From: Protonemura montana
Taxonomy: Eukaryota > Arthropoda > Insecta > Plecoptera > Nemouridae
Length of the DNA: 64,000 nt
Assembly (NCBI GenBank): GCA_947568835.1
Contig: OX387608.1
Span: 17,890,535 to 17,954,534, forward strand
Direction of reading: 5' to 3'
In this document: in pieces, positions 1 to 64,000 of the stretch
How positions within the stretch are numbered: the stretch's first letter is position 1
Layout of the letters: each line of letters opens with the position of its first letter
The notes under the pieces: generated by a model
Told to the model about the DNA's origin: nothing
Seen by the model: the letters and a program-made list of their open reading frames with translations, nothing else
The model's database searches: none
Position numbers and translations under genes: made by a program

Positions 1-469
1 AACTGAATTTCCCAACGTTTTGTAACTTGTACCTGTTACTTTATCAAGGGTTAAAGCAGTCCTGACAATTTTCCAATAACAAAATAACCACATAAAATAA
101 CAAGTGTAAAAGCAATGATAATGAATCTCTATGGGGAGAGATGTGGGAAGTTGGAAGATTGATTGGCAAGACTTCGAGAGAAGAGAATAACTGGAGGTTG
201 TATTAGAATGAAATCTGATTTAAATTGCAAACGCTTGCAATGCGCGGGTATTTTATTATTATCAACACTATAACCGTCTCAGAAATTGATGCCCAAACGC
301 GGATGTTTGGGCATCAATTTTTGAGACGGTTGTACTGGAGGTTGTAGATGACATTTTAGGTAATTGTTATAATTTGTTAGAGTTCTTTTGTTATCAGAAA
401 ATTGTCAGGACTGCTCTTACCCTTGATAAAGTAACAGGTACAAGTTACGAAACGTTGGGAAATTTAGTT
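1..469. mobile_element. Foldback/MITE-like element with 84-bp terminal inverted repeats
   Basis: Bases 1-84 are the reverse complement of bases 386-469 with only a few mismatches (outer ends AACTGAATTT and AAATTTAGTT). The interior is A+T rich and has no meaningful ORF. The left end coincides with the window edge, so the element may extend further. A related single end recurs at about 52,183-52,290. The long inverted ends and lack of coding capacity are typical of non-autonomous DNA transposons or foldback elements. I see no target-site duplication, because the left flank is outside the window. Confidence 0.75.
272..331. repeat. Nested perfect hairpin inside the foldback element
   Basis: Arms 272-298 and 305-331 are 27-bp inverted repeats with one mismatch and a 6-base loop (GCGGAT). 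The palindrome lies near the centre of the larger 84-bp-TIR element, giving a hairpin within a hairpin. It may be a second small MITE inserted in the first. No function is implied. Confidence 0.8.
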
Positions 470-1395: not shown

Positions 1396-1499
1396 CACGA
1401 CAGGTGACAAAGTGACTGGTAGGTAAATTCGTAGAATTATTGCGACACAATTTGTGGAGTTTAACAACGCTCTGATCTAACAACGGGGCCCGATGCACT

Positions 1500-1800
1500 G
1501 GCTAAAATCTTTGGTGAATGAGTGGATGATAATTAGGATAATGATTAGCCTAACCTAGCCTACAACTGAAAAGTGGAGATCCGGTGACTGCCCTTTGCCT
1601 ACTTCTGTCGTAGAGCATTAAGAAACCAACGGCTTTAAGTCACAAGTACTGGTAGAACTCGAGCAACTCCACTAATCTGACAAGGGGTTGAAAAATAAGT
1701 GGAACAAAGTTGTTAATACGTAACGTCTCTCCAACCTCGCTCCCGCACTTACATGTGTATGATGGTAACCCATCCAATACCTCAGTGATGTATTGGTCAA
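1500..1800 (-). mobile_element. 5S-derived composite SINE, single-monomer copy
   Basis: Read on the minus strand this contains one degenerate 91-bp 5S-like monomer (GGTATTGGATGGGTTACCATC at about 1,760-1,795). It is followed by the body module that also follows the large arrays at 53,455-53,750 and 62,700-62,940, and by the tail CCACTCATTCACC. It shows the element with only one head unit. Divergence from the other copies is high, so it is an old insertion. Confidence 0.6.
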
Positions 1801-2570
1801 TGCACGCGGGTGTACCCAGTCCACCCACTATTAATTTTATTTTTGGCCGTACCCCCACTTTGAATTTTTGAGGGAACGCAGGTGAACGCACGGGAAAGCA
1901 GTATTAAATTATGATTATTCGAAATATCCTGCACTTCTTTATTTTCAAGGCGAAAATATCCCAGTTACGGGTTTCATTCCTAATAATCCACTTACTTAAA
2001 AATAGACCTAGCAAGAATGTCACTGTTTGCGAACGTACTTAGAGTAGGTAGGCTGGAATTGTGTCGGCGTCGCGACTCGCAACAAAGGGGTTAGTTAGAA
2101 CCATATTACTGTTATCACTTAGGGAAGTCGGTAGCCGCTTTCGCGCCGTCGCACGGCGGTGCAAGCTCTCAGAAGCAAGCCCGCTTAAAAAATAAGAATT
2201 CGCAGGAAAGATAAAAATACAAAGAATAACCAAAATGCCACATACGAGCCACACTGGACGAGTTAGTTCAATTCAAGATACAGAAGAGGAAGCAAGTGGA
2301 TTTGCATTCCCTATCGGGTAATTAAAAATGCAGTTCTGACCATGTCATTCCAAGCCCAATTTCATCGTAAACTCGTAGATTGACTCCAAAAGAAACCTTA
2401 GAATAAAAATTCACTTGGAGCTGCGCCCGAAGCCCCCTATTTCCCACTCTTTCGGTGCATTCGCCTTGGGTCTCCTCATCCTCCCCCCCCCCCCCCCCCC
2501 CCCGCCCCGCGGCCCGCCAACACAAAAAAAATATAAAATATGTCATTTTTGCATACCCCCACTAAAAATT
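1800..2570. other. Non-coding stretch with a 21-base poly-C run
   Basis: No supportable gene. A run of 21 C at 2,483-2,503 is the only striking feature. It may be length-variable or affected by sequencing error. Confidence 0.4.
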
Positions 2571-5552
2571 TTCCAAATACATCACTGCAATACCTGGCCC
2601 AGAGCAGTGTTGCTTAACTTTCATCCCTCCAACCTCTCTCCCGAACAGAACTGGTCATGTGTATGGTAACCCATCCAATACCTGACCCAGAGCAGTGTTG
2701 CTTAACTTTCATACCTCCAATCTCTCTCCCGAACAGAACTGGTCATGTGTATGATGGTAACCCATCCAATACCTGGCCCAGAGCAGTGTTGCTTAACTTT
2801 CATCCCTCCAACCTCTCTCCCGAACAGAACTGGTCATGTGTATGATGGTCACCCTTCCAATACCTGACCCAGCGCAGTGTTGCTTAACTTCCATCCCTCC
2901 AACCTCTCTCCCGAACAGAACTGGTCACGTGTATGATGGTCACCCATCCAATAACTGACTCAGCGCAGTGTTGCTTAACTTCCATCCCTCCAACCTCTCT
3001 CCCGAACAGACCTGGTCATGTGTATGATGGACACCCATCCAATACCTGACTCAGCGCAGTGTTGCTTAACTTTCATCCCTCCAAACTCTCCCCCGAACTG
3101 AACTGGTCATGTGTATGATGGTCACCCTTCCAATACCTGACCCAGTGCAGTGTTGCTTAACTTTCATCCCTCCAACCTCTCTCCCAACATAACTGGTCAT
3201 GTGTATGATGGTCACCCATCCAATACCTGACCCAGCGCAGTGCTGCTTAACTTTCATCCCTCCAATCCCTCTCCCGAACAGAACTGGTTATGTGTATGAT
3301 GGTAACCCATCCAATACCTGGCCCAGAGCAGTGTTGCTTAACTTTCATCCCTCCAACCTCTCTCTCGAACAGAACTGGTCATGTGTATGATGGTAACCCA
3401 TCCAATACCTGGCCCAGAGCAGTGTTGCTTAACTTTCATCCCTCCAACCTCTCTCCCGAACAGAACTGGTCATGTGTATGATGGTCACCCTTCCAATACC
3501 TGACCCAGCGCAGTGTTGCTTAACTTCCATCCCTCCAACCTCTCTCCCCAACAGAACTGGTCATGTGTATGATGGTAACCAATCCAATACCTGACCCAGC
3601 GCAGTGTTGCTTAACTTCCATCCCTCCAACCTCTCTCCCCAACAGAACTGGTCATGTGTATGATGGTCACCCTTCCAATACCTGACCCAGCGCAGTGTTG
3701 CTTAACTTCCATCCCTCCAACCTCTCTCCCCAACAGAACTGGTCATGTGTATGATGGTCACCCATCCAATACCTGACCCAGCCCAGTGTTGGTTAACTTT
3801 CATCCCTCCAACCTCTCTCCCAAACAGAACTGGTCATGTGTATGATGGTAACCCATCCAATACCTGGCCCAGAGCAGTGTTGCTTAACTTTCATCCCTCC
3901 AACCTCTCTCCCGAACAGAACTGGTCATGTGTATGATGGTCACCCTTCCAATACCTGACCCAGCGCAGTGTTGCTTAACTTCCATCCCTCCAACCTCTCT
4001 CCCGAACAGAACTGGTCACGTGTATGATGGTCACCCATCCAATAACTGACTCAGCGCAGTGTTGCTTAACTTCCATCCCTCCAACCTCTCTCCCGAACAG
4101 AACTGGTCATGTGTATGCTGGACACCCATCCAATACCTGACTCAGCGCAGTGTTGCTTAACTTTCATCCCTCCAACCTCTCTCCCGAACAGAACTGGTCA
4201 TGTGTATGATGGTCACCCTTCCAATACCTGACCCAGCGCAGTGTTGCTTAACTTCCATCCCTCCAACCTCTCTCCCGAACATAACTGGTCACGTGTATGA
4301 TGGTCACCCATCCAATACCTGACCCAGCGCAGTGTTGCTTAACTTTCATCCCTCCAACCTCTCTCCCGAACAGAACTGGTCATGTGTATGATGGTCACCC
4401 ATCCAATACCTGACCCAGCGCAGTGTTGCTTAACTTTCATCCCTCCAACCTCTCTCCCAACAGAACTGGTCATGTGTATGATGGTAACCCATCCAATACC
4501 TGACCCAGCCCAGTGTTGGTTAACTTTCATCCCTCCAACCTCTCTCCCAAACAGAACTGGTCATGTGTATGATGGTCACCCATCCAATACCTGGCCCAGA
4601 GTAGTGTTGCTTAACTTTCATCCCTCCAACCTCTCTCCCGAACAGAACTGGTCATGTGTATGATGGTCACCCTTCCAATACCTGACCCAGCGCAGTGTTG
4701 CTTAACTTTCATCCCTCCAACCTCTCTCCCAACATAACTGGTCATGTGTATGATGGTCACCCATCCAATACCTGACCCAGCGCAGTGCTGCTTAACTTTC
4801 ATCCCTCCAACCTCTCTCCCGAACAGAACTGGTCTTGTGTATGATAGTCACCCATTCAATACCTGACCCAGCGCAGTGTTGCTTAACTTTCATCCCTCCA
4901 ACCTCTCTCCCAACATAACTGGTCATGTGTATGATGGTCACCCATCCAATACCTGACCCAGCGCAGTGCTGCTTAACTTTCATCCCTCCAACCTCTCTCC
5001 CGAACAGAACTGGTCTTGTGTATGATAGTCACCCATTCAATACCTGACCCAGCGCAGTGTTGCTTAACTTTCATCCCTCCAACCTCTCTCCCGAACAGAA
5101 CTGGTCTTGTGTATGATGGTCACCCATTCAATACCTGACCCAGCGCAGTGTAGTTTAACTTTCATCCCTCCAACCTCTCTCCCGAACAGAACTGGTCATG
5201 TGTATGATGGTCACCCTTCCAATACCTGACCCAGCGCAGTGTTGCTTAACTTTCATCCCTCCAACCTCTCTCCCGAACAGAACTGGTCTTGTGTATGATG
5301 GTCACCCATTCAATACCTGACCCAGCGCAGTGTAGTTTAACTTTCATCCCTCCAACCTCTCTCCCGAACAGAACTGGTCATGTGTATGATGGTCACCCTT
5401 CCAATACCTGACCCAGCGCAGTGTTGCTTAACTTTCATCCCTCCAACCTCTCTCCCGAACAGAACTGGTCATGTGTATAATGGTCACCCATCCAATACCT
5501 GACCCAGCGCAGTGTTGCTTAACTTTCATCCCACAAGGACCAGTATTTCCAA
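2570..5552 (-). repeat. Array of about 33 5S rRNA-derived 91-bp monomers
   Basis: On the minus strand a 91-bp unit repeats about 32-33 times. Each unit carries AGTTAAGCAACACTGCGC, a GTCAGGTATT block and GGATGGGTGACC, which correspond to box A, the intermediate element and box C of the 5S rRNA internal promoter. A non-5S spacer with GACCAGTTCTGTTCGGGAG follows. The 5' (high-coordinate) border at about 5,520-5,552 runs into a degenerate 5S 5' end (GGTTGGAAATACTGG). The low-coordinate end stops inside a monomer without the usual body module. Because 91 is not a multiple of 3, overlapping short ORFs arise on both strands and are not genes. Confidence 0.85.
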
Positions 5553-6480
5553 CCCTTCGGTTTGTATATAGAGTACCCAATATAATCTTTATATCGTAAG
5601 CTATATCGTAGGCTTCAAGGCTTGGGATCGACCAAAGATTGTTTGACCAATCGGCCAGATGATGCTGCCAAACGATATTAGGGAGCAGGTATTTTAGGTA
5701 GGGCCTTCCGACCTGCAGTGCGCTCTTTAAAGATTCAATGACAATGACAGTACCTTCCCCGAAAGAGCGCACTTTGTTCACCGCAGTGGATAGATAACAA
5801 TCTCAAAAATATTCACTTATTCACTCAAACACGACTGTGAGGAAAATTAACTACCATAAATTTATAATTGTATATCAATGTACCGTTTAATACGTTCTAA
5901 AATCAATGAATTATATATAGCAAAAAAAACTTAAACTTGGATCAATCTGTGCTTGGATGTAAATATAATTACTTTCTCAGAACATTGGCTAAAAACGAAC
6001 GAAGCACTTATTTAGTTGCAGCATTACATTGACATTTGCGTTGTGAAGGTTGCTTTGTGACATGCTAGAGACAGAAATTATGCAATTGTTTTGTTGTAAG
6101 AAAAAGGGTACCCCGTTCTGGCAACATTGTCACAGTATCTACACCAACCAATAAACGCTTCGATCACCTTTTCGCGTAGTAAGGATGAGCGATTTAAGAC
6201 GAGTTTTTGATTTGAGTTGTTACCAATCAACAATAGATGCGTTTTTTTGATGCAATTTTGGGGCCGCAAATGTATATTCCTTGTGTTGAAATTATTCTTT
6301 GCTCTAAACAGTCACACACACACACACACAGACAAGTGATTTTTAGAGCAGTGTAATTGAGAGGATTTTGCTCGCTTCCCTCGCTCATTCAATTAGAAAT
6401 ATATTTAGCATTATCTATTGTTTGCTACCAGAGGGCGCTCCAATATGGGAATAAAGTCTTATATATCACATTATAGGCTC
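5553..6480. other. Intergenic sequence with a short (CA)n
   Basis: No gene is supported. A CA dinucleotide run lies at about 6,313-6,330. The longer minus-strand reading frame at 5,428-5,781 starts in unique sequence and runs into the 5S-like array, so it is fortuitous. Confidence 0.4.
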
Positions 6481-6484
6481 AATA

Positions 6485-6560
6485 TCATCCATTCATTCAC
6501 CGACACCATGAGCCCAGTGCAACAATCCCAGTTATTAAAACAGTGCGTTCGTTAAACATC
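6485..6560 (+). mobile_element. Tail fragment of the 5S-derived composite SINE
   Basis: The string CATCCATTCATTCACCGACACCAT followed by AGCCCAGTGCAAC...CAGTTATTAAAACAGTGC matches the 3' tail of the complete element at 53,690-53,745 (ATCCACTCATTCACCGACG...CAGTTGTATAACAGTGC). The 5S-like head and body are absent. Confidence 0.5.
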
Positions 6561-33159: not shown

Positions 33160-33629
33160 AATGAATGAATATATTTATATTTAGCTGTCAAGTTATTGCA
33201 TCACGTATAGCAGCTAACACAATATTATAACAATACATTAACATAACATATTGATACATAATAATAATAATAATACAAACATAATAGCAATGCTAACATT
33301 TTTTTAAACATTATGTAATTTAAAAATGTTCTTGTATAAAGTTAATGTTTATTATAATTTAAAAGTTGTACTTATTTCTACTGTGATATTTGGACTCTAA
33401 GCAGTAAATTCACGGGGTGCTCTAAAAGTTGTTTTTTCCAGTATTTATTAGTTTTCACTTTCTTTGGTTGCTATTTATTAGCAGGCATTCTTGTCTGAGC
33501 AATTGCAAAATTAGTTGCATTCCTGACTTCATGCAGTAGTTTATTGAAAAGTAGTCTGCCTTTTGAAAATATAGTTTTATTATTAAATAAAGTTAAAGTT
33601 CTATGTACAAAGCAGTATTTAAAATACTA
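33160..33629 (-). mobile_element. 3' end of older LINE (LINE-A), part 2
   Basis: Minus-strand translation of 33,530-33,628 gives the last about 35 codons of a CR1/L2-like LINE polyprotein (NNKTIFSKGRLLFNKLLHEV, then a stop at about 33,480). A 3' UTR ending in an AAT-rich simple repeat near 33,260 follows. The frame continues from 35,090-35,345 once the inserted LINE-B is removed. Confidence 0.6.
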
Positions 33630-43389: not shown

Positions 43390-43477
43390 ATGTAGAGATG
43401 TGCTTCACGGTGTTTGCTCTGTTTAATGAGATTGTTGGCCCTAAAAAGGGCCTTGGCTCGAAGAGGCGAAGTCCTAC

Positions 43478-44908
43478 GTGAGGAACTCGGCCCACCTCGT
43501 CAGCCTGCTCCAAGATCTCAAGCTGGAACCCGGGGACATGCTGGTCAGCTTCGATGTGGTATCCCTGTTCACAAAGATACCCATCGGCGAAGCCATGGAC
43601 AAGATCACCGCCAACTACCTACTGCCGGACTACGTCGTCGACCTAACAAGACACTGCATGGAGTCGACGTATTTCCTGTTCGACGGCCAGTTCTACAGAC
43701 AAGTGGAAGGCGCACCGATGGGATCACCTCTGTCCCCCGTGATCGCCAACCTGTTCATGACCGAGTTCGAGACCGAAGCCATCAACTCAGCGCCTCTGAA
43801 ACCTAGCTGTTGGCTCCGATACGTCGACGACACCTTCGTTGTGTGGCCACACGGCGCGGCGAAGTTGGACGAGTTCCTGACCCACCTGAACAGCAGGCAC
43901 GCCAACATCAAGTTCACCATGGAAATAGAAGCGAACAACAAACTCCCCTTCCTGGACTGCCTCGTGATGAAGAGACCAGATGGGACGCTCGGCCACTCGG
44001 TATACCGGAAGCCCACACACACGAACCGCTACCTGAACGCGACATCGCATCACCACCCCGCCCAGCTTCGATCGGTAGCTAGTTCACTGGCATACCGATC
44101 TAAAGCCATCTCCGACGCGGACCACCTAAAAACCGAAGCCCGTACACTCAAGTCCGCTCTCCTGCAAAACGGATACACCAACCGCGACTTCCAAAAAGCC
44201 TGGAACTTGAGAAGAAAAGAAAAGCCAGACGAAGATGAGACATCGGTGGCCACCGCCTTCCTCCCGTACGTGCGAGGGGTTACCGACCGCATCGGCAAGC
44301 GACTAGCTGCCGCCAAAATCAAGACCGTCTTCCGAGCCGACCGCAAGATCCAAGACCTGCTACGCAGCGCCAAAGACAAGATAGCGCTCGAAGAACACGG
44401 GGTGTACGAAGTGCCCTGCGCCGACTGCAACAACACATACGTCGGGCAGACGAGTAGGCACATGTCGAAGCGGCTTCAAGAACACCGGCGAGCGGTCGCG
44501 ACCGGCCAAAGCACCTCCTCTCTGTTTCAGCACACGGAGCAGACCGGGCACGAGATACACTTCGATGGCATGAAGTCCCTGGCCGCGGTGACGCACTACC
44601 GAACACGAACCATCCGCGAAGCAGTGGAGATCGAAAGGCGCCCGTTCAACATGAACAAACGGGATGACAGCATCCGCCTTCCTCACGCGTGGAAGCCCGT
44701 CACGGACAAGATCTCCGTGACACCGGCAGAGCCCACCGTGAGACCGACCCCACGAGCCGCCACTCCGGCGAACATACGAGCCCGCCAAGATGCCCCTGCG
44801 CGCAACACGCGATTGGCTACCGCAAGAGCCAATGGGAGAGCGGCGCTCTGCGCTACACGCTCCGCTACAAAACCGAGCGGCCGAACGACAGCACTATCAG
44901 TCTCCTGA
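43478..44908 (+). CDS. Penelope-like reverse transcriptase with GIY-YIG endonuclease
   Basis: A frame of 476 codons, with in-frame coding upstream to about 43,461 (EEAKSYVRNSAHL), so the shown Met is internal and the N-terminus is missing. RT motifs in order: SFDVVSLFTKIP, GAPMGSPLSPVIANLF, the catalytic RYVDD at about 43,818, and NKLPFLDCLV. The C-terminal GIY-YIG endonuclease follows: GVYEVPCADCNNTYVGQTSR with a CX2C linker, then LQEHRRAV, and a late NMNKRDDSIRLPHAW. The frame is intact. Codon use is markedly GC-rich compared with its surroundings, which fits a recent arrival. Confidence 0.9.
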   Translation: MRNSAHLVSLLQDLKLEPGDMLVSFDVVSLFTKIPIGEAMDKITANYLLPDYVVDLTRHCMESTYFLFDGQFYRQVEGAPMGSPLSPVIANLFMTEFETEAINSAPLKPSCWLRYVDDTFVVWPHGAAKLDEFLTHLNSRHANIKFTMEIEANNKLPFLDCLVMKRPDGTLGHSVYRKPTHTNRYLNATSHHHPAQLRSVASSLAYRSKAISDADHLKTEARTLKSALLQNGYTNRDFQKAWNLRRKEKPDEDETSVATAFLPYVRGVTDRIGKRLAAAKIKTVFRADRKIQDLLRSAKDKIALEEHGVYEVPCADCNNTYVGQTSRHMSKRLQEHRRAVATGQSTSSLFQHTEQTGHEIHFDGMKSLAAVTHYRTRTIREAVEIERRPFNMNKRDDSIRLPHAWKPVTDKISVTPAEPTVRPTPRAATPANIRARQDAPARNTRLATARANGRAALCATRSATKPSGRTTALSVS

Positions 44909-45756: not shown

Positions 45757-45812
45757 GGAGAATGAGTGAATGCGTCGGTGAATGAGTGGATGATAATGAA
45801 TCTAACCTAGCC
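45757..45812 (-). mobile_element. Tail fragment of the 5S-derived composite SINE
   Basis: GTCGGTGAATGAGTGGATGAT followed by CTAACCTAGCCTAGAAG matches the tail module at 62,722-62,765 and (inverted) 53,630-53,690. Head and body are missing. Confidence 0.5.
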
Positions 45813-46159
45813 TAGAAGAGAAAATTTAACAAAATTAGCGATAAAAAAATGTGTCGCTGGGCTTATATCTGGTTCATTTTTCAAAAATCCCTTTGAAAAT
45901 GTCATGACATGCTCATCGTCTGGTTAAAACTGGCTAAAGGCTGGTTCAAACATGCCTGGCATGCACTCTCTTAGGCAGTATCTAGAAAAGGCACTCTTAT
46001 AGGTAAATACAGAAAGATTTGTTTACTAAATTAAGGTCAAACTGTCTTTGTCTAGAATTAGTTGTAAAATGAGTGCTCTTGAAATTCTTATTCAATTGAG
46101 GTAAACAATAGTGACAATTGTTAAAATATTGATATCTAGCATTGCTCTGAATTGCTCAC

Positions 46160-49555: not shown

Positions 49556-50890
49556 CCATGCAATACCATACAATACCATAGAATATCATAAAATACCATA
49601 GAAAACCATTCAATACCAAAGAAACCCTAAGAAAACTATAAAATTCCATATAATACAATACAATACCATAAAATGCCATAGAAAACCAAACGAACCCATA
49701 TAATACCAAACAAACCCATAAAATACCAAACAATATCATACAATACCAAAGAGTATCTAGAATACCATACAATACCATACAATACCATACAATACCATAG
49801 AATACCTAAAAATGCCAAACTATATCATCGAATACCATTCAATTCCTAACAACACCATAAAGTACCTTATAATACCATAGAAATCCATTGAAACTCATAA
49901 ATATACCAGAGGATACCAAACAATACCATAAAATAATAAAGAAACCCATAGGAACATCATAGAATATCAAATAATACTATCGAATACCTCCAAATACCAT
50001 AGAGAACCATCTTATATCAAAGAAATCCATACAATTTTATAGAATACCATCCAAAAACATTTAATACCAAACAATACCATACAATACCATACAATATCAT
50101 AGAATACCATAGGAATCAAAAGAATACCATAGAATACCATATAATATCATACAATACCATAGAACACCATAGAACACCATAGAATACCAAACAATACCAT
50201 AGAATACCATATAACTCCATAGAATACCATAGAATAACATACCACTCCATAGAATACCATACAATACCATAGAATATCATAGAATACCATAGCACTCCAT
50301 ATAATACCATAGCATACCATAGAATACCATACAATACCATATAATATCATACAATACCATAGAACACCATAGAACACCATAGAATACCAAACAATACCAT
50401 AGAATACCATATAACTCCATATAATACCATAGAATAACATACCACTCCATAGAATACCATACAATACCATAGAATATCATAGAATACCATAGCACTCCAT
50501 ATAATACCATAGCATACCATAGAATACCATACAATACCATAGAATATCATAGAATACCATAGCACTCCATATAATACCATAGCATACCATAGAATACCAT
50601 AGAATATCATAGAATACCTTGGAATACCACAGAATACCATATAACTCAATAGAATACCATAGAATACCATAGTATACCATATTATACCATACAATATCAT
50701 AGAATACCATAGATCTACATAGAATACCATAGAATATTATAAAACTTCATAGAATACCATAGAACACCATAGAATATCATAAAATACCATAGAACTCCAT
50801 AGAATACCATAGAATACCATAGGATAACATAGACTACCAGATAACACCATAAAGTACTATACAATATTATACAATTCCATAGAAAACCAT
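49556..50890. repeat. 10-bp minisatellite (AGAATACCAT)n with higher-order repeats
   Basis: About 130 units of 10 bp. A 20-unit (200-bp) block beginning ATAATATCAT at 50,141 recurs at 50,341, and a 70-bp block recurs at 50,271, 50,471 and 50,541. The right part is more regular than the left. All three minus-strand frames are open and read as Tyr/Trp/Met/Leu repeats. These are by-products of the repeat, not genes. Confidence 0.9.
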
Positions 50891-51173
50891 ATTAAACTTA
50901 GATTGCGTATTTGGATTAGATTTGATCAAACTGCACTCTGTCATTAATGACGTTTTGAATTTAAATACCTGTTGAATGATCACGACATCCTCGAAAATAA
51001 AATAAATATCCACGGCGTCCTGATTCGATGAAAGATATCTGTCAAATGTTTATCTTTGATCTGTCAATGTCACTCTAAATCTAGTTTTGGCAAAATCATC
51101 AATAAAAAACTAATCAAGTGTGTTTTGTTTGTTTAAAAACCCTATTTAATGTCTTAAGTCCTTTGATTCCCAG

Positions 51174-51268: not shown

Positions 51269-51452
51269 GTAAGCCAGGATTCGATCAGCATTTTCCACAA
51301 TAAATCCCCTGCAAAGAATCGTTTCTTCCAACTTTCCTTGCACTAAACGAGTCCGTCCATCGTTTGCTTGTTTAAATGTCGCATCTCCCCGTCCCAGTGG
51401 CGTTGCCAACTGCTGGTACTCGTGACTAACGTATTTTTTGTTTTGTCTGCAG

Positions 51453-51564
51453 TTTTTGGTCACGATCAAGGAAAGTGATCGTGAAGACATCGAGGAACCA
51501 GAGCGATACGACTTCCCTCAGACAAGAGACTTACGATGGAATGTGCCGGACCACAAAACTAGAG
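51453..51564 (+). CDS. Exon candidate, acidic 37-codon segment
   Basis: Acceptor TTTTGTCTGCAG and donor AGAG|GTACGC. The open frame starts FLVTIKESDREDIEEPERYD and ends RWNVPDHKTR. It is protein-like. The phase does not join directly to the next candidate (51,863), so an exon may be missing. Family not recognised. Confidence 0.4.
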
Positions 51565-51862
51565 GTACGCTTTGAACCATCTTACTTCAGTAGTACTGCA
51601 TGGATGTCAAGCTCCCTGCTCCAAACTAAAGCTTTCATTGCAAGATGACATTTCATTTCAAAATGCTAACAATTAGAAATAAACTGATAGCGTGCACAAC
51701 TACCCTCTCAAAGAATCTGTTCCAATTCGTGAAATCGACCCCCAGCCTCTTTAACTCACGTGGTACATACTTGAACTTCACCTGAAAAAGTTGTTGCTAG
51801 CGACCGTCTAGCGGAAACTAATTGAATGTGTCGACTAATCCGCGGCCTTCCTTTTCACGCAG

Positions 51863-51984
51863 GTTTCCACTCAAGCCTTGGTTTACATGGAACGTTGTCC
51901 GCGATCTGATTGCTGGTCGCGGTGGGACTGAATCCGATCTCCTACCTGCGTCATCGAGACGTCGCTACTGCAGCGTCGATAGAT
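51863..51984 (+). CDS. Duplicated exon, copy 1
   Basis: Acceptor CTTTTCACGCAG and donor AGAT|GTAAGT bound 122 bases that encode FPLKPWFTWNVVRDLIAGRG, then 20 further residues to CSVDR. Copy 2 at 53,854-53,975 differs by only two synonymous changes (CGC/CGT, ACT/ACA). A 122-base exon spliced twice in a row would shift frame, so only one copy could be used per transcript. Family not recognised. Confidence 0.45.
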
Positions 51985-52182
51985 GTAAGTTGGCACGAGC
52001 CTTCACATACAAGAATGTACCAAGAATGGAGCATATGCGCAAGCTTTATCCAAGTTATTTATCCAAGTTCTCGAGTCCAAGAGAAAATAGTTCTGTTTGC
52101 CAGCTCTGCACTTTATCACCGCATTTTACAATGTCAATGAAGCAGTGCAATGCTAGCAATAACTACTTCATGATCCCCTAAC

Positions 52183-52290
52183 CATTGAAGAAGTAACTAG
52201 TACAAGTTACGAAAAGTCGGGAAATTTAATTGTCCTTTACTTAGCATTCAAAACCCATTTCAAATAGTTTTTGTTAAAAAAAAGCTAATG
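52183..52290 (+). repeat. Fragment related to the foldback element at 1-520
   Basis: AGTACAAGTTACGAAA, GGGAAATTTA and AAATAGTTTTTGTTAAA match 435-520 in order and direction. It is a single end only. Confidence 0.55.
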
Positions 52291-52362
52291 TTGCGTTTCG
52301 TTCAAAAATTGGATTTGCACTTTGTCCCAAGTAAACGTAGTTGGCCGAAGCACGTCCCCAGA

Positions 52363-53751
52363 GTTAAGCAACACTGCGCTGAGTCAGGTATTGGATGGGT
52401 GACCATCATACACATGACCAGTTCTGTTCGGGAGAGAGGTTGGAGGGATGGAAGTTAAGCAACACTGCGCTGAGTCAGGTATTGGATGGGTGACCATCAT
52501 ACACATGACCAGTTCTGTTCGGGAGAGAGGTTGGAGGGATGGAAGTTAAGCAACACTGCGCTGGGTCAGGTATGGGATGGGTGACCATCATACACATGAC
52601 CAGTTCTGTTCGGGAGAGAGGTTGGAGGGATGAAAGTTAAGCAACACTGCGCTGGGTCAGGTATTGGATGGGTGACCATCATACACATGACCAGTTCTGT
52701 TCGGGAGAGAGGTTGGAGTGATGAAAGTTAAGCAACACTGCGCTGGGTCAGGTATTGGATGGGTGACCATCATACACATGACCAGTTCTGTTCGGGAGAA
52801 AGGTGGGAGGGATGAAAGTTAAGCAACACTGCGCTGGGTCAGGTATTGGATGGGTGACCATCATACACATGACCAGTTCTGTTCGGGATAGAGGTTGGAG
52901 GGATGAAAGTTAAGCAACACTGCGCTGGGTCAGGTATTGGATGGGTGACCATCATACACGTGACCAGTTCTGTTCGGGAGAGAGGTTGGAGGGATGAAAG
53001 TTAAGCAACACTGCGCTGGGTCAGGTATTGGATGGGTGACCATCATACACATGACCAGTTCTGTTCTGGAGAGAGGTTGGAGGGATGAAAGTTAAGCAAC
53101 ACTGCGCTGGGTCAGGTATTGGATGGGTGACCATCATACACATGACCAGTTCTGTTCGGGAGAGAGGTTGGAGGGATGAAAGTTAAGCAACACTGCGCTG
53201 GGTCAGGTATTTGATGGTTGCCCATCATACACATGACCAGTTCTGTTCGGGTGAGAGGTTGGAGGGATGAAAGTTAAGCAACACTGTGCTGAGTCAGGTA
53301 TTGAATGGGTGACCATCATACACATGACCAGTTCTGTTCGGGTGAGAGGTTGGAGGGATGAAAGTTAAGCAACACTGTGCTGAGTCAGGTATTGAATGGG
53401 TGACCATCATACACATGACCAGTTCTGTTCGGGAGAGAGGTTGGAGGGATAAAAGTCAGTACAGCAACTTCACTCGCCTTGCTTATCAGCCTCTCGACAG
53501 CATGGATTTGTGGAGGAATCCTGTTGTTCGCGTTGTACCGTCCTTTGGAAGGGACGTGATGCCGGTGGTCCCCTTGGTCTTCGACAGAAGTAGGCTACGT
53601 GCCGGCACCGGGTTTCCCCTCCTCCCTTCTAGACTAGGTTAGGTTCATCATCATCCTCATCATCATCCACTCATTCACCGACGCCATTAGACCAGTACCG
53701 CATGGCCAGTTGTATAACAGTGCTAAGTTAAACACCACAAATAATAATAAG
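52363..53751 (+). mobile_element. Composite 5S-derived SINE, about 12 head monomers plus body and tail
   Basis: Twelve 91-bp 5S-like monomers (AGTTAAGCAACACTGCGC ... GGATGGGTGACC) in the 5S sense direction run to about 53,455. A body of about 240 bp follows (ACAGCAACTTCACTCGCC, GCCGGCACCGGGTTTCCCC, CTAGGTTAGGTTCATC), then a tail ending in AATAATAATAA. It lies exactly between the two copies of a segmental duplication. Pol III promoter elements of type 1 (box A, IE, box C) are present in every monomer. Confidence 0.8.
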
Positions 53752-54430
53752 TGGCACATACTTGGAATTGACCTCGAAAAGTTGTTGCTAGCGACCGTCT
53801 AGCGGAAACTAATTGAATGTGTCGACTAATCCGTGGCCTTCCTTTTCACGCAGGTTTCCACTCAAGCCTTGGTTTACATGGAACGTTGTCCGTGATCTGA
53901 TTGCTGGTCGCGGTGGGACAGAATCCGATCTCCTACCTGCGTCATCGAGACGTCGCTACTGCAGCGTCGATAGATGTAAGTTGGCACGAGCCTTCACATA
54001 CATCTGATAATATATGACTGATACACTTACCGCAATGGTAAACGCACTCTATTGACAGATCCCAACAATGCTGGCACAAATATATTATGTTAATCCTTCG
54101 TCCCCAACAATGAAATATCAGCGCAAGCTTTATCCAAGTTCTCAAGTCCACAAGAAAATAGTTCTTTGTTTGCCAGTTCTTCACTTTTTCCACACATTTT
54201 CCACATTCAATGAAGCAGTGCAATGTTAGCAAAAACTAGTTCTTGATCTCCACAACAGTTCGTTTGCATTTTGCACTGACTTTCGACCCGTCGTGAACAC
54301 TAGAAAACAGCTGACAAAACTAAACCCAATCAAAGGTTCATGACAAGTAAAATAAAGCCCATGTTTCATTTCGTTCAAAAGCTGGATTTGCACTTTTCCC
54401 CGAGTAAACGTAGCTGTCCGGAGCATGTTT
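53752..54430 (+). repeat. Segmental duplication copy 2
   Basis: Begins directly after the SINE tail at GTGGCACATACTTGG and ends CGGAGCATG, the position where copy 1 meets the SINE head. Contains exon copy 2. Confidence 0.75.
53854..53975 (+). CDS. Duplicated exon, copy 2
   Basis: Same borders, length and protein as 51,863-51,984, with two synonymous differences. The downstream candidate sequence (from about 54,498, after GTCTTCAG) has no clear open exon. Confidence 0.45.
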
Positions 54431-54886
54431 TACTGAGTGCAAGAGTCGTCATGTACCTGGCAATGAATCTAATGTCACTTTATTCTGTTGTCTTCAGATG
54501 AACTCCACTAGTCGCTGCTGGAAGCCGATGCATCTTGGCTTCCTCCGACGAGACCTTGCTTCAAGCCCTGGAAATTGTAGCAAGTACGCTCTGTGAGAGT
54601 TTTATCAGGCGTCTGAGGAAACATGGGGCAACTTTTGTTAGATAGATAACATATTTAATTGCTTGCTTTGTGGGGCTTAACGTCACGTCAGTTCAGAGGC
54701 TGTTCAAGTCTCGAGTTCGGGAAATATTCATAATTCTTGATTCATTTGTGTGACATGAGAGAAGTCGAGAAAAATTTGGGGACAAGGCCATTGTTGTTAG
54801 ACTTCCTGTCCAAGTTTTGGATTGTTGTAGGTTCTTGCTAGAGGCTGTTTCGTTTTTCACAGTTAGATTGGTTCGGTACCGAACCG
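54431..54886. other. Unassigned region
   Basis: No gene, RNA or repeat that I can support. Confidence 0.4.
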
Positions 54887-54958
54887 TAGTAGGTTTGTTA
54901 GGTTTGTTAGGTTTGTTAGGTTTGTTAGGTTTGTTAGATTTGTTAGATTTGTTCGGTT
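54887..54958. repeat. 9-bp minisatellite (TTAGGTTTG)n
   Basis: About seven units, the last two as TTAGATTTG. Related in periodicity to the CTCTAACAC-type repeat at 58,797-58,878 on the other strand. Confidence 0.85.
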
Positions 54959-54959
54959 T

Positions 54960-55650
54960 TGGTGTAGAATGGTCGTTTCTTTGTCACTTTGTCCATCGTT
55001 GAGGGTCGCTGGAATTAGGTTAATTTGATCTTCTAGTTTTCATGTCCAATTTTTTTTGTCTTCTCTCATGTTGTGTTTTTTTATCTTAGTTTGCCTTACG
55101 CCTAGAATATGTAATATTGTGATCAATTAAGTTAACGTAAAATCATAGCAGATAGAGTCATAAGGGAGAGTAGAGTTTCCTCAGATGCTTTGAGATTCAT
55201 GTGACCAAATTTACAAGCCATAGGACTTTATCGCTCGCCTGCATAATGTTCCTGTTTGCACCCGTGAGGCCCGCCTCGGACGTTCGTTTTTCATGGTTTT
55301 CGCGCGTCTTAAGTTAAGCTAATGCTGGGCGATTGATTATAATCTTCACAAATCACAGATTATAATCGGCCATGACCACTGACCTCACGGAACAAACGCT
55401 TGGAAATATCAAATAAATCACTCTCACAGTTAGCAAGATTTACGTGAACACAAACACGTGAATAGTAATTCAGATATTGTTAAAACATTTGAATTGTATT
55501 TGATGGCGATATTATTGTCATTATATATATATTGTGTTGTGATATAAAAATTTACAACCCTACAGCCTTTTAATTGGGATCCCTGGATGAAAAGGAATGT
55601 CACGAGTTTGCGGTGCTTGTAAAACTGGAATTCCTGTAACTTTCACTTCC
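54960..55650. other. Unassigned region
   Basis: A+T rich. No gene, RNA or clear repeat is recognised. Confidence 0.4.
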
Positions 55651-56290
55651 AAATTTTCCTTCCGCCTTAAGGTACCTCAGTATGATATTATTATTGTACA
55701 AGATTTTTGAGTTCAGCCGGGTTTTCGTTTGATAGTAACGGCCGGTTTAGTTACTCAAGGTAGCAAGAAATCGTATGCATGTTGGGATGTGGACGCCGTT
55801 TAACCCCTGCAGAAAATCAGGCCTAAATTTTCCTTCCGCCTTAAGGTACCTCAGTATGATATTATTATTGTACAAGATTTTTGAGTTCAGCCGGGTTTTC
55901 GTTTGATAGTAACGGCCGGTTTAGTTACTCAAGGTAGCAAGAAATCGTATGCATGTTGGGATGTGGACGCCGTTTAACCCCTGCAGAAAATCAGGCCTAA
56001 ATTTTCCTTCTGCCTTAAGGTACCTCAGTATGATATTATTATTGTACAAGATTTTTGAGTTCAGCCGGGTTTTCGTTTGATAGTAACGGCCGGTTTAGTT
56101 ACTCAAGGTAGCAAGGAATCGTATGTGTGTTGGGATGTGGACGCCGTTTAACCCCTGCAGAAAATCAGGCCTAAATTTTCCTTCTGACAGAAGGTACCTT
56201 TGTACATGTTATCATTTTACAGGACTTACGTTGGACCGGGTTTTCGTCTGGTAATTACAGCAAGTTTAGACATTCACGCTTCTCTGGTAA
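55651..56290 (+). repeat. 174-bp tandem repeat, three full copies plus one diverged
   Basis: Units start AAATTTTCCTTC at 55,651, 55,825, 55,999 and 56,173. The first three are almost identical and the fourth is diverged. An inverted diverged copy lies at 56,600-56,790, so the whole may be the tandem-repeat-bearing terminal inverted repeat of a foldback element of about 1.1 kb. Confidence 0.85.
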
Positions 56291-56599
56291 GTTTCTTATT
56301 TTAGTCGTAATTGTGTCCTTTTAGTGCATTCTCAGTACATAAGTCATTTTTATGTCATTTTATGTGATTTATTTAATTTTGTGCATAGATTGAAGTCGTT
56401 TTTGTATATCTTTGAATTATTCGCAATATTTTTAATTTCTTTATGTTCGAATTTGCGCGTATGGTCTTTTTTCCCATGGTCCATTGCTGAGTTCCTGATT
56501 GGCTTAGCGGGCATGATTGTAGCCTCCTAAGGGGTATTTAAATGTCAGCCATGTTTTATCAGGATGTGCCGCTGGTTGAGCCTGACCCCAATAAGCAGC

Positions 56600-56790
56600 C
56601 CATTGAGATTGTCGAATTGAAACATCTTGTAAAATGATGACAGCATAATGAGGTTTCTTGAGGTAGAAGAAATTTTGAGCCCGAATGTTCTAAATGGGTT
56701 TAAAATTATCCACGACACGATTTCTTGTTATCTTGAGTAACTAAACCCGGCTTCAACTACCGAACGAAAATCTATTGATTGAATAATTGA
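56600..56790 (-). repeat. Inverted diverged copy of the 174-bp unit
   Basis: The reverse complement contains GGGTTTAGTTACTCAAGATA, AAGAAATCG, AAATTTCTTCTACC and TCATCATTTTACAAGA in the same order as the direct units. Confidence 0.6.
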
Positions 56791-56799
56791 TTATTGGGG

Positions 56800-57930
56800 T
56801 TTTGACATCTGGTCATGCAGCACTGGTCTTATGGTGACGGTGAATGAGCATGCACTGTCCGGCTGTGACACTGTTTTGTTCGGTTTTCGGAATCGGTAAA
56901 TAAAGGATCTGGCGTCAACTGAATTAAATGTGACGAGTTGTCACATTTGGCCAAATTGGCAGACCAAGACATTTTGGAAATGGTGCGCACCGATCGAAGT
57001 TTGGTGGTTAAATTGTACGATACAAACAAGGAATTCCGAAAGTTTCATTACTCGCTAAATGCGCTGCGTTTTAAGATAGCAGTGTCGCGACCTATCTCAA
57101 TTGCCAAAATACCCCCGAGAGAATGGGCAGTTCATCAGCACGTGACACGAGCTGCATGACAATGTAGCACTTGGGTAAACTCGCACGTGCAATTTCCAAA
57201 AATATGGCGTAAGTTTGCCAAAGTAATATTCAAAGCAATTCAAGACTTTTTTGAACTTGAATTTAAATGCCGTCTCCATTTTTTTCTTCTTCTTATTTTT
57301 ATTATTTGTGGTGATAGGTCCCAAAGAAAGTGGCTGGTGTCAGAGCCTGGGCAGAAATTTCGTCTCGCTTGTGTACTTCGAGGGTCTAACAGCCATGGAA
57401 ATGTTGAAAAATTTCAATCAAATCAAAGTAATCCTGCAGCGTAAACTCCACTTGCACGTGCAGTAGGAATGGAATTGGGTGCACCGACCTATGCAATAAT
57501 GCAGGTGTGATGGGGAATGCTACTATGCCTACAATGATATGATATGATATGAGAGTGCATGTTTGATGTGGATGTTTTGATTAATCAAGTCGCATCGATA
57601 GCCTCGACGGTATCTTTTTAAAAAATGCGGCTAAACATACTCTGTCTGGATTCATTGCATGGACTTATTGGGAGTATTTCGCTATAACCACACTCGCTGG
57701 CACTAAGCCTCGGATAAGCAAACACATTCTCTGCCTCGTGTGGTTTCCCGAACATAAACAATGAAATCGCATAGGTACCCAGAAATGACGATATGTATGT
57801 TGCATTAGCCTCGGCGACGCGTCCAAAGATGCCTTTGACACTCGATGCATGCCGCCCGATACTGGCTATCGCTACCCAGAGTAAGATTTCGATCCTCGGT
57901 AAGGATGAAAACTAAACAGATCTAAACATT
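56800..57930. other. Unassigned region
   Basis: Several 60-85-codon frames exist (for example 56,938-57,159, plus) but none has a recognisable domain or splice context. A short GATAT repeat lies at about 57,536-57,551. Confidence 0.35.
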
Positions 57931-58878: not shown

Positions 58879-58984
58879 GAATTAAGAGGGAAGAGTAACC
58901 ATATGCCGGCAAAGAAACAAAACCTCCTGACTGCTCGATGATGCCTTCTCCATCAACGACTTCGACCCAAGATTTCCAACACGC

Positions 58985-59152
58985 CGAACCGTTCGGTGGT
59001 CACCCATCCAACACCTGACCCAACGCAGTGTTGCTTAACTTTCATCCCGCCAACCTCTCTCCCGAACAGAACTGGTCATGTGTATGATGGTCACCCATCC
59101 AACACCTGACGCAGCGCAGTGTTGCTTAACTTCGGTGATCCCAGCGAAGGGC
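58985..59152 (-). mobile_element. Short 5S-derived element, two heads and no body
   Basis: On the minus strand the sequence starts GGGATCACCGAAGTTAAGCA, a good match to 5S rRNA. It carries two 91-bp-type monomers and ends GGATGGGTGACCACCGAAC. The body and tail are missing, so it may be an intermediate between a 5S pseudogene and the composite element. Confidence 0.6.
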
Positions 59153-59600: not shown

Positions 59601-59738
59601 GAAAAAAACCATGCATTGTTTTATTGCTGCGTTTTGTCGCAGATAATAAATCGTCAGATTCTTCGTTGAACTTCAGATCCCACGGATTAGTTTAGGAAAG
59701 CAATTAGCTACTGATGCAATTAATTGATTGAGTATTGG

Positions 59739-60020
59739 TGTTTGACGACGCAAGTTATTACAACTGGGCGTGAAAGAGGGGTCTGGGCCTCGGTGAATGA
59801 AAGATTGACAGCTCCGATACTAGCATGATCTTCGAATTATAGCTTGGACTGATATTATGGGAAGAAACCTGAGAAACAATCATAGGAGCTGTCAGGATTC
59901 GCTGGAGACTTACGGGTCTTTAGAGCAACATATCATAATAAATTGTGGCACGCAAAAAAAACTCTGGTCTAGTTCGCTAGTTCGGTCCGAGCATTGGCTT
60001 CATGGAATGTCTATCTGTCC
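59739..60020 (+). repeat. Dispersed repeat copy 1 (GTGTTTGACGACGCAAG)
   Basis: The start (GTGTTTGACGACGCAAGTTA, GAGGGGTCTGGG, CTCGGTGAATGAAAG) and end (GAGCATTGGCTTCATGGAAT) match 61,880-62,055, with about 100 extra bases in the middle. Unknown mobile family. Confidence 0.6.
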
Positions 60021-61735: not shown

Positions 61736-61879
61736 CATTGTCACACTGAACATTCTGTATTTTTTAATTAAATAATGACTGTCTGTGTTGATCAAATGTA
61801 TTGATCAAAATCGACAATAATCTTACTATTATTATTATTATTGTTATCAGCTACGTATACAATTTATTTATTGATTTTT

Positions 61880-62055
61880 AGTGTTTGACGACGCAAGTTA
61901 TTACAACAGGGTGGGATGTGTAAGAGGGGTCTGGGTCTCGGTGAATGAAAGCATGACCTCCGGGTCATAGCGTGGGCTGATGATTGGTAATATCTGGAGA
62001 CATTTCATGCAACATTTCATACTAGTTCTGTCCGAGCATTGGCTTCATGGAATGT
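61880..62055 (+). repeat. Dispersed repeat copy 2 (GTGTTTGACGACGCAAG)
   Basis: Second copy of the family at 59,739-60,020, same direction, shorter in the middle. Confidence 0.6.
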
Positions 62056-62695
62056 GTACGAGGCTGGTTCATGAGAGGAGCATAACATGACAGTATCTTC
62101 TCTCTCACTTGCACAACACAGACGGGGCTAGAGTCTGTCTCTGTCTGACCCGCATAGATCAGCAAGAGTAGGTAACATCTCCAGTCAACTACCCTCACTT
62201 TTAAACCTAGACAAACACACATTAATTCCAGTCATTCGTTCTTGACTTTCATCCCAGGAAACTGTAATGTAACTTGAATCAGAGAGCCGTGCATTGCTAG
62301 ATCTCCTACCGAGCTGATCTGTTGGTCATACCGATGATAGTTCACCGAGTTCAATCACTGCACTAATAGTTAGACATAATAATTAATAATAATTGCTCAA
62401 TAAAATTAATGTGCTCCCAGAGAGTAAAAGTGAGCAGCGAAGCTTTACACAACTGAAATCACAAAACGCATGTTAGTTTCAAGAGAGAAACGAATGCTGT
62501 AAGATCAACGCCAGGCAATGTAAGACCAGAGATTGATATTCTGAATGGTTGTTCGAGTGCACGGGCTTTTAAATGTAATATTATACTAACACCAAGAAAT
62601 GCAGGCTTCTTTGCTAATCAGAGGTTAACAAATGTATTCCAGGAAATTGAATTCAAGCTGTTCATGTTGATTGACTTGCACTGTTTTGACATCTG
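62056..62695. other. Unassigned region
   Basis: No gene or repeat that I can support. Confidence 0.4.
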
Positions 62696-63615
62696 TCTAT
62701 GTGGCACTGGTCTAATGGCGTCGGTGAATGAGTGGATGATGATGAACCTAACCTAGCCTAGAAGGGAGGAGGTGAAACCCGGTGCCGGCACGTAGCCTAC
62801 TCCTGTCGAAGAGCACCAAGGGGACCACCGGCTTAACGTCCCTTCCGAAGGACGGTATAACGCGAACAACAGGATTCCTCCACAAATCCATGCTGTCGAG
62901 AGGTTGATAAGCAAGGCGAGTGAAGTTGCTGTACTAACTTTCATCCCTCTAGCCTCTTTCACGAACAGAACTGGTCATGTGCATGATGGTCACCCATTCA
63001 ATACCTGACCCAGTGCAGTGTTGCTTAACTTTCAGCCCTCTAACCTCTCTCCCGAACAGAACTGGTCATGTGTATGATGGTCACCCATCCAATACCTGAC
63101 CCAGCGCAGTGTTGCTTAACTTCCATCCCTCCAACCTCTCTCCCGAACAGAACTGGTCATGTGTATGATGGTCACCCATCCAATACCTGACCCAGCGCAG
63201 TGTTGCTTAACTTCCATCCCTCCAACCTCTCTCCCGAACAGAACTGGTCATGTGTATGATGGTCACCCATCCAATACCTTACCCAGCGCAGTGTTGCTTA
63301 ACTTTCAGCCCTCTAACCTCTCTCCCGAACAGAACTGGTCATGTGTATGATGGTCACCCATGCAATACCTGACCCAGCGCAGTGTTGCTTAACTTTCATC
63401 CCTCCAACCTCTCTCCCGAACAGAACTGGTCATGTGTATGATGGTCACCCATCCAATACCTGACCCAGCGCAGTGTTGCTTAACTTTCAGCCCTCTAACC
63501 TCTCTCCTGAACAGAACTGGTCATGTGTATGATGGTCACCCATCCAATACCTGACTCAGCGCAGTGTTGCTTAACTTAGGTGATTTTATGAGAACCGGTG
63601 TTTCCAACACGCCAA
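62696..63615 (-). mobile_element. Composite 5S-derived SINE, about 7 head monomers, body and tail
   Basis: From high to low coordinate: a 5S-like 5' end GGAAACACCGGTTCTC (about 63,590-63,612) joined to AGTTAAGCAAC, about seven 91-bp monomers to 62,940, the body module (GCGAGTGAAGTTGC in plus orientation, the GCCGGCACG region), and the tail ending ACTCATTCACCGACGCCATT. This is the best view of the complete architecture, because the 5S 5' domain is preserved once at the start. Confidence 0.8.
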
Positions 63616-64000
63616 ACCGTGGGGTGAGTGGATAATAAAGGAATGTTGGTTAGTATTCAACAATTTGATTGGGTAAGAATAAATCAGGAAAGATTTAAAA
63701 GTACTACGCGTGAGACGTGGGAGCTGTGGTCAGAGTAGGGGCGGTATGATCCACCCCTCCTCGGGGGACCATGTGCAGAAGTCACAGAGCGCATGTTAGT
63801 AGGTCAGTCTGCCAAACATTGGCGAGTGTTGTGGAAGCAAATACGAGTGCTTTTCAAAACAGCGCGGATTTGGCTCTCGCTGATCGGCAGTGCATTTACA
63901 GAGAAATAACTCCAAGGGATTACTAATTGTTAATTAAACCGTGAGTAATTGAGACATACAATCTCAAGGAAGGAAGGAAGCAGATCTTGGAGACATGTCG
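63616..64000. other. Unassigned region at the window end
   Basis: No gene or repeat is recognised. Confidence 0.4.

What the first reader, a model, noticed from the sequence alone, without database searches (positions are those of the whole stretch)
62696..63615. A 5S rRNA-headed SINE whose head is expanded like a satellite
The same architecture recurs through the window: a 5S rRNA 5' domain once, then a 91-bp unit with 5S box A/IE/box C repeated 1 (1.5-1.8 kb), 2 (59.0 kb), about 7 (63 kb), 12 (52.4-53.5 kb) or about 33 times (2.6-5.5 kb), then a conserved body of about 240 bp and an AAT-rich tail. Seen directly: the periodicity, 5S motifs, shared body and tail. Known: SINE3-type elements carry 5S-derived pol III promoters, and 5S-related satellites exist. 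Inferred: the head is amplified within a mobile element, giving tens of tandem pol III type 1 promoters per insertion.
Basis: partly seen in the sequence, partly recalled or inferred. Interest (0 to 1): 0.8.

Follow-up and report, generated by a model that had tools for sequence, protein, structure and literature searches.

The report
SINE with satellite-like 5S promoter head
A very abundant small jumping element with a promoter borrowed from 5S ribosomal RNA carries, mostly towards chromosome ends, two to dozens of tandem copies of that promoter unit, showing a mobile repeat turning into satellite DNA.

Summary
The locus is a 5S rRNA-headed SINE (SINE3 type) on the minus strand, with grammar H-(I-l)n-B: 5S 5' domain, n units of 91 bp (44-nt 5S control region plus 47-nt linker), a body of about 290 nt and an AAT/CAAT tail. 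The focal copy has n=7. Genome-wide, with up to 3 mismatches, there are 9,105 linker-body junctions, 26,310 unit-unit junctions and 32,988 unit cores. Exact-flank elements with n=1 to 5 number 759, 189, 147, 98 and 53. On C1 arrays lie near the ends while single-headed copies also cover the interior. Array-bearing copies have target-site duplications as often as single-headed ones. Unit number differs between duplicated loci, and most sampled arrays mix the same two unit types. I conclude that short expanded heads are retrotransposed and then expand further in place. The kind is known (SINE-derived satellites of squamates, also subtelomeric). A 5S-headed form keeping both SINE ends and TSDs is a new variant. 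Promoter activity is untested.

The parts
63577..63625 (-). Head H: 5S rRNA 5' domain (SINE 5' end)
   Evidence: Rfam 5S match 63620-63510; chain parse; alignment of the consensus head to host 5S
62940..63576 (-). Array of 7 units of 91 bp: 5S control region (44 nt) plus linker (47 nt)
   Evidence: 7 BLAST hits in register; TRF; parse
62678..62939 (-). SINE body; its 3' end and AAT tail are missing in this copy
52362..53453 (+). Array of 12 units of 91 bp, no head
53454..53753 (+). SINE body and AATAATAATAA tail of the 12-unit element
2588..5525 (-). 32 full units and the start of a 33rd, main part of one element of about 33 units
5526..5561 (-). Diverged head remnant of the 33-unit element
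   Evidence: read from sequence
1783..2587 (-). hAT-like insertion of 805 bp that splits the 33-unit element; inverted ends CAGTGATGTATT, 8-bp duplication AGGTATTG
   Evidence: the name hAT is recalled from the 8-bp duplication and CAGTG ends
1450..1782 (-). Rest of the last unit and old body of the 33-unit element (69% to the focal body)
58973..59132 (-). Bodyless fragment I-l-I-H with a 92-bp-register junction

Best explanation
It is a high-copy 5S rRNA-headed SINE whose 5' promoter region is prone to tandem duplication. The basic element is H-I-l-B. The 91-bp unit I-l lies between two AAGTTA sequences, one at the start of the 5S control region and one at the start of the body. Mispairing of these two, then of whole units, makes (Il)n. 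Two other registers also occur: a 92-bp H-I unit starting at the element's own 5' end, and (seen at one locus) a 15-bp unit between two GACCA sequences in the linker. Short expanded heads (n=2 to 7 among the TSD-bearing sample) were retrotransposed as parts of whole elements; towards chromosome ends arrays then expanded, contracted and were slightly homogenised in place, like a young satellite. Shown: element grammar, copy counts, terminal bias, TSDs, unit-number difference between duplicated loci. Inferred: the slippage mechanism, transposition of the array as such, and pol III reading from the head through the whole array.
For: Grammar H(Il)nB or (HI)mH(Il)nB in sampled loci. Counts with up to 3 mismatches: body core 8,183, unit core 32,988, unit-unit junction 26,310, linker-body junction 9,105, 92-bp-register junction 2,239; reversed-pattern controls 0. 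Exact-flank elements n=1..5: 759, 189, 147, 98, 53, a single-headed class plus a decaying tail (ratios 0.25, 0.78, 0.67, 0.54). TSDs of 7 nt or more at the element ends: 6 of 17 with n>=2 and 7 of 21 with n<=1, against 0.36% of 1,406 mismatched pairs. Position (n counted as linkers): n>=2 in 17 of 22 body copies within C1 0.27-3.6 Mb and 2 of 27 in 7.3-27.4 Mb, Fisher p 6e-7, with similar body identity, medians 92.1 and 92.9%. C1 exact-flank copies in 3-25 Mb: 20 of 55 with n=1, 1 of 35 with n=2-5, p 2e-4. In-place change: duplicated loci L061 and L062 (flanking and middle parts 91-99.6% alike) hold 10 and 13 versus 9 and 6 units. Pre-insertion expansion: 19 of 22 arrays hold both A and G at unit position 22, A in 14 of 27 first units and 32 of 149 later ones, p 0.0018. 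The 15-bp register: 92 copies in L021.
Against: Units are only slightly more alike within arrays than between (95.4% adjacent, 94.9% non-adjacent, 94.6% between arrays), so the data do not cleanly separate expansion before and after insertion. The A/G sharing could come from exchange between subtelomeric arrays, and 4 of the 22 arrays are two duplicated loci counted twice. First units are not closer overall to other first units (94.4%) than to later units of their own array (94.9%). Array-bearing bodies are slightly closer to consensus than the rest (medians 92.7 and 91.4%, p 0.05), so age may play some part. If arrays move as such, interior insertions should carry them more often, unless they contract there. 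On C14 four-unit copies are spread along the contig rather than confined to its ends. The focal copy lies in a 3.3-3.9 kb block duplicated on several contigs, so its 7-unit state was not gained independently in L002-L007.
Confidence: 0.72

Rival explanations
1. Expansion happens only in place: every insertion arrives single-headed, and arrays form later in terminal heterochromatin by slippage or unequal exchange, as in ordinary satellites. Mobility plays no part in array spread.
For: Strong terminal bias on C1 at similar body identity; unit number differs between duplicated loci; the 33-unit element has an old body (69%) but units about 94% alike; L035 holds four near-identical private units.
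Against: 19 of 22 arrays mix the same A and G unit types, with A enriched in first units; a 3-unit element with 97.6% body identity and a 9-bp TSD lies in the interior of C1 (L039).
Confidence: 0.3
2. The 91-bp unit is an independent satellite, and SINE bodies sit beside it by chance or by insertion into it.
For: Some arrays have no body in the parsed stretch (L027 3561-3966, L033 3691-4310).
Against: The linker-to-body junction pattern occurs 9,105 times; 39 of 49 sampled bodies have a control region beside them; TSDs enclose head, array and body together in 6 of 17 testable array-bearing elements.
Confidence: 0.03
3. An LTR element with a 5S-derived LTR (Cassandra or Ajax type) rather than a SINE.
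For: 5S-like control regions in tandem superficially resemble repeated LTRs.
Against: Independent copies have unrelated flanks right up to the head, end in AAT/CAAT repeats, and their duplications vary between 7 and 15 nt among those found, unlike the 5-bp TSD reported for Ajax.
Confidence: 0.02

Closest known systems
SINE-derived satellites (sSats) of squamate reptiles, Vassetzky et al. 2023, PMC10702118 (abstract and sections 5, 18, 19 read)
   Same: Tandem units made from part of a SINE, in snakes including a promoter box; longer terminal unit reaching a SINE end; many loci and registers; homogeneous units within and between loci; preference for subtelomeric regions; long arrays scarce in chromosome interiors.
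   Different: The main snake unit there holds promoter box B (tRNA type); here the head is 5S-derived with box A, IE and part of box C. There both SINE ends are a minor variant; here head and body are usually both kept and TSDs can flank the whole element. The paper leaves open whether such satellites exist outside squamates.
SINE3 / 5S rRNA-derived SINEs, e.g. HaSE3 (PMC3272025, passages seen) and PxSE4/PxSE5 (PMC8010984, passages seen)
   Same: 5S-derived head with A, IE and C boxes, unrelated body, simple-repeat tail, TSDs.
   Different: No tandem head is described in the passages seen; 'tandem' occurs 0 times in either main text. Here the head is expanded in register.
Cassandra and Ajax TRIMs (PMC10886601, abstract and passages seen)
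   Same: Mobile elements with a 5S-derived promoter; a paper on long tandem arrays of Cassandra is in its reference list.
   Different: Those are LTR elements; here no LTRs and a SINE-like tail.

Membership tests
SINE3 (5S rRNA-derived SINE) | Head derived from 5S rRNA with internal control region | tested here: met
   Rfam 42.7 bits at 63620-63510; alignment to a host 5S gene: AAGTTAAGCAACA identical, box C only in its first part (box limits recalled)
SINE3 (5S rRNA-derived SINE) | Body unrelated to 5S and simple-repeat 3' tail | tested here: met
   Many sampled copies end ..GTCGTTAAACACCACAAAT then AAT or CAAT repeats
SINE3 (5S rRNA-derived SINE) | Target-site duplications | tested here: met
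   13 of 38 testable elements with 7 nt or more, control 0.36% of 1,406 pairs; 25 of 38 show none of that length
SINE3 (5S rRNA-derived SINE) | 3' end shared with a partner LINE | tested here: inconclusive
   A second repeat shares the GCGTCGTYAAACACC tail (59719-59767, 61862-61895), but no LINE ORF was tied to it
SINE3 (5S rRNA-derived SINE) | Transcription by pol III | not testable with these tools
   No RNA data; the 91-bp unit has no T4 run
SINE-derived satellite | Tandem unit equals part of a SINE, with terminal unit running to the SINE end | tested here: met
SINE-derived satellite | Subtelomeric preference of arrays | tested here: met
   C1 sample and C1 exact-flank positions; on seven contigs of known length 48 of 66 n=4 copies lie in the outer 2x20%, 26.4 expected (66 of 98 n=4 copies used). 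C14 is an exception
SINE-derived satellite | Homogeneity within and between loci | tested here: met
   94.6-95.4% among array units, 85.8% among single units
Cassandra/Ajax TRIM | Long terminal repeats and a fixed short TSD | tested here: not met
   Unrelated flanks up to the head in independent copies; shared end sequences only 5-15 nt and of variable length; no dedicated LTR search was run

The most novel reading that the evidence does not exclude
A SINE family in which a tandemly repeated type 1 pol III promoter is part of the transposing unit: RNA started at the head reads through n control regions, is reverse transcribed with n changing by template slippage, and seeds new satellite loci at chromosome ends. 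The linker (47 nt) has almost the length of the 5S leader before box A (48 nt), so every unit in the array also keeps the native start-to-box-A spacing and could act as its own promoter.
Probability: 0.45. Interest if true: 0.68.

Novelty: new variant of a known kind. Interest (0 to 1): 0.52.

Why it matters
How satellites are born from dispersed repeats is mostly inferred from old arrays. Here one genome holds a series from n=1 to dozens, with insertion signatures, in up to three duplication registers, in about 9,000 copies. That makes birth, spread and contraction of a satellite countable by locus and testable with a sister genome. [quoted passage not shown] its 258-Mb genome and 5S sequence make that unlikely (inference, from recall).

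Tried and rejected
Inverted SINE arrays about 4 kb apart on C1 first looked like termini of a composite transposon; L061 and L062 proved to be copies of a larger duplicated unit, partly present in the window at 51.3-56.8 kb, so this was dropped. A depletion of T4 runs on the sense strand (18 against 55 A4 runs) was rejected as evidence: the body consensus itself holds AAAA. A 5S origin of linker plus body start (possible ancestral dimer) was tested by shuffling: 62 of 500 shuffles reached the score, so it is not supported. Age alone as the cause of the terminal bias was rejected because body identity is alike in both zones, though array-bearing bodies are marginally younger (p 0.05). First-unit clustering over the whole unit was not found; only positions 22 and 69 were seen to differ. 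Three headless elements (L042, L048, L056) start within a few bases of the linker start, two with TSDs of 10 and 14 nt read by eye; internal initiation or a reverse-transcriptase stop could explain it, and three cases are too few. A first, looser TSD scan of 43 elements gave 8 with 9 nt or more against 0.55% of controls, in line. The partner LINE was not found. The host species was not identified. Print searches; no listed title or abstract start names a 5S-headed SINE with a tandem head, but the library is open-licence only and some listings were capped (15 of 52, 12 of 33, 12 of 13).

Full report
What is there. The focal stretch is one SINE on the minus strand, 62678-63625. Its 5' part matches Rfam 5S_rRNA (63620-63510, 42.7 bits). 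It reads H(Il)7B: a 5S 5' domain H, seven 91-bp units made of a 44-nt 5S control region I and a 47-nt linker l, and a body B. Genuine 5S genes lie elsewhere in the genome (47 scored matches at 108.7-117.5 bits). Against one of them, the consensus H and I follow 5S from its 5' end to GGATGGGTGACC and then leave it, so box A is intact and box C is cut short (box limits recalled). The focal copy lacks the last part of the body and the AAT tail.

The 1.5-1.8 kb and 2.6-5.5 kb parts are one element of about 33 units: an 805-bp hAT-like insertion with 12-bp inverted ends and an 8-bp duplication lies between them at 1783-2587, inside the last unit. The 59.0-kb copy is a bodyless I-l-I-H fragment, and the 12-unit copy at 52.4 kb has body and tail but no head. 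So the five copies named are three elements and a fragment.

Genome-wide counts. The window is C11:17890535-17954534 of a 258-Mb genome. With up to 3 mismatches: body core 8,183, unit core 32,988, unit-to-unit junction 26,310, linker-to-body junction 9,105 and 92-bp-register junction 2,239; each reversed-pattern control gave 0. Elements with exact flanking 16- and 18-mers and n=1, 2, 3, 4, 5 units number 759, 189, 147, 98, 53; a few loci are counted in two classes, e.g. C4:922254/922345 and C5:1628889. The step from 1 to 2 is steep (0.25) and later steps are shallower (0.78, 0.67, 0.54), as for two populations.

Sampled loci. The first 40 of 69 exact-match bodies on C1 were fetched. Parsing gave 49 bodies of at least 180 nt (none from L054); 39 have a 5S control region beside them and 10 do not. 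With n counted as linkers, 17 of 22 bodies within 0.27-3.6 Mb have n>=2, and 2 of 27 within 7.3-27.4 Mb (p 6e-7), while body identity to consensus is alike in the two zones (medians 92.1 and 92.9%); array-bearing bodies are marginally closer to consensus than the rest (92.7 and 91.4%, p 0.05). The exact-flank lists agree: on C1, 20 of 55 n=1 copies but 1 of 35 n=2-5 copies lie in 3-25 Mb (p 2e-4); on seven contigs of known length 48 of 66 n=4 and 31 of 39 n=5 copies lie in the outer fifths, against 26.4 and 15.6 expected, 66 of 98 and 39 of 53 copies being used. C14 is an exception, with n=4 copies along its length.

Insertion signatures. For 38 elements with a head and a body reaching its 3' end (L002-L007 and L062 dropped as duplicates; headless copies and incomplete bodies dropped, the focal one among them), exact TSDs of 7 nt or more at the expected place occur in 6 of 17 with n>=2 and 7 of 21 with n<=1; mismatched pairs give 0.36% of 1,406. 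Examples with arrays: L029 n=6, L035 n=5, L039 n=3, L008 n=7. The usual 5' end is ACCGAACGG, close to the 5S start.

Before or after insertion. Units of arrays are 94.6% alike between arrays and 94.9-95.4% within, while single-headed units are 85.8% alike. Unit position 22 is mostly A or G; 19 of 22 arrays hold both, A is commoner in first units (14 of 27) than later ones (32 of 149, p 0.0018) and is 15 of 23 in single units; four of the 22 arrays belong to two duplicated loci. This suggests that the source already had two unit types, or that arrays exchange units. Over the whole unit, first units do not group together (94.4% with each other, 94.9% with later units of their own array). In the other direction, L061 and L062 are duplicated loci with 10 and 13 versus 9 and 6 units, L035 has four near-identical private units, and the 33-unit element has an old body but young units. 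Six further near-identical copies of the focal locus, L002-L007, belong to a duplicated block, each with n=7; L008 shares only the element and is independent.

Mechanism. The 91-bp unit starts at AAGTTA in the control region and ends where the body begins with the same AAGTTA. The 92-bp register starts at the element's own 5' end; L031 holds both registers, (HI)6H(Il)5B. A 15-bp register between two GACCA sequences of the linker reaches 92 copies in L021. Slippage between short direct repeats, followed by unequal exchange, is the simplest origin (inference). The linker is 47 nt and the 5S leader before AAGTTA 48 nt, so arrays keep nearly the native promoter spacing (sequence; functional meaning inferred).

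Place among known things. By its features it is a 5S-derived SINE. The array behaves as SINE-derived satellites do in squamates (PMC10702118: abstract and sections 5, 18, 19 read), including subtelomeric preference; that paper leaves occurrence outside squamates open. New here, as far as the searches show, are the 5S head, both ends usually kept with TSDs, and several registers in one family.

Noticed in passing
window 10466-31775: Tandem array of at least six copies spaced 4,202 bp, 99% alike over the compared 300 nt.
   Followed up: no
window 51326-56788, L061, L062: A duplicated unit of about 6 kb carries two SINE arrays in inverted orientation in L061 and L062; pattern coordinates on C1 suggest more copies at 23.32 and 26.09 Mb.
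   Followed up: partly
L021 3092-4469: A 15-bp satellite of 92 copies (ATACACATGACCATC), matching the start of the SINE linker, next to a SINE.
   Followed up: partly
window 59719-59767 and 61862-61895: A second repeat family shares the SINE's 3' tail (GCGTCGTCAAACACC then AATC-like repeats); possibly the partner LINE's 3' end.
   Followed up: partly
window 43445-44908 and 33623-34993: Two reverse-transcriptase ORFs (RVT_1, E 8e-13 and 4.8e-29); the first recalls Penelope-like elements (recalled).
   Followed up: no
G000 C11:70-105743: 5S genes in a repeated unit of about 9.5 kb with two plus- and one minus-strand copies per unit, at the start of C11.
   Followed up: no
L042, L048, L056: Headless SINE copies that start within a few bases of the linker start, two of them with TSDs read by eye; internal start or reverse-transcriptase stop.
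   Followed up: partly
window 49562-50891: 10-bp satellite AATACCATAG, 133 copies.
   Followed up: no
window 6474-6546, 45772-45821, 56799-56848: Short fragments of the SINE body without 5S units.
   Followed up: no
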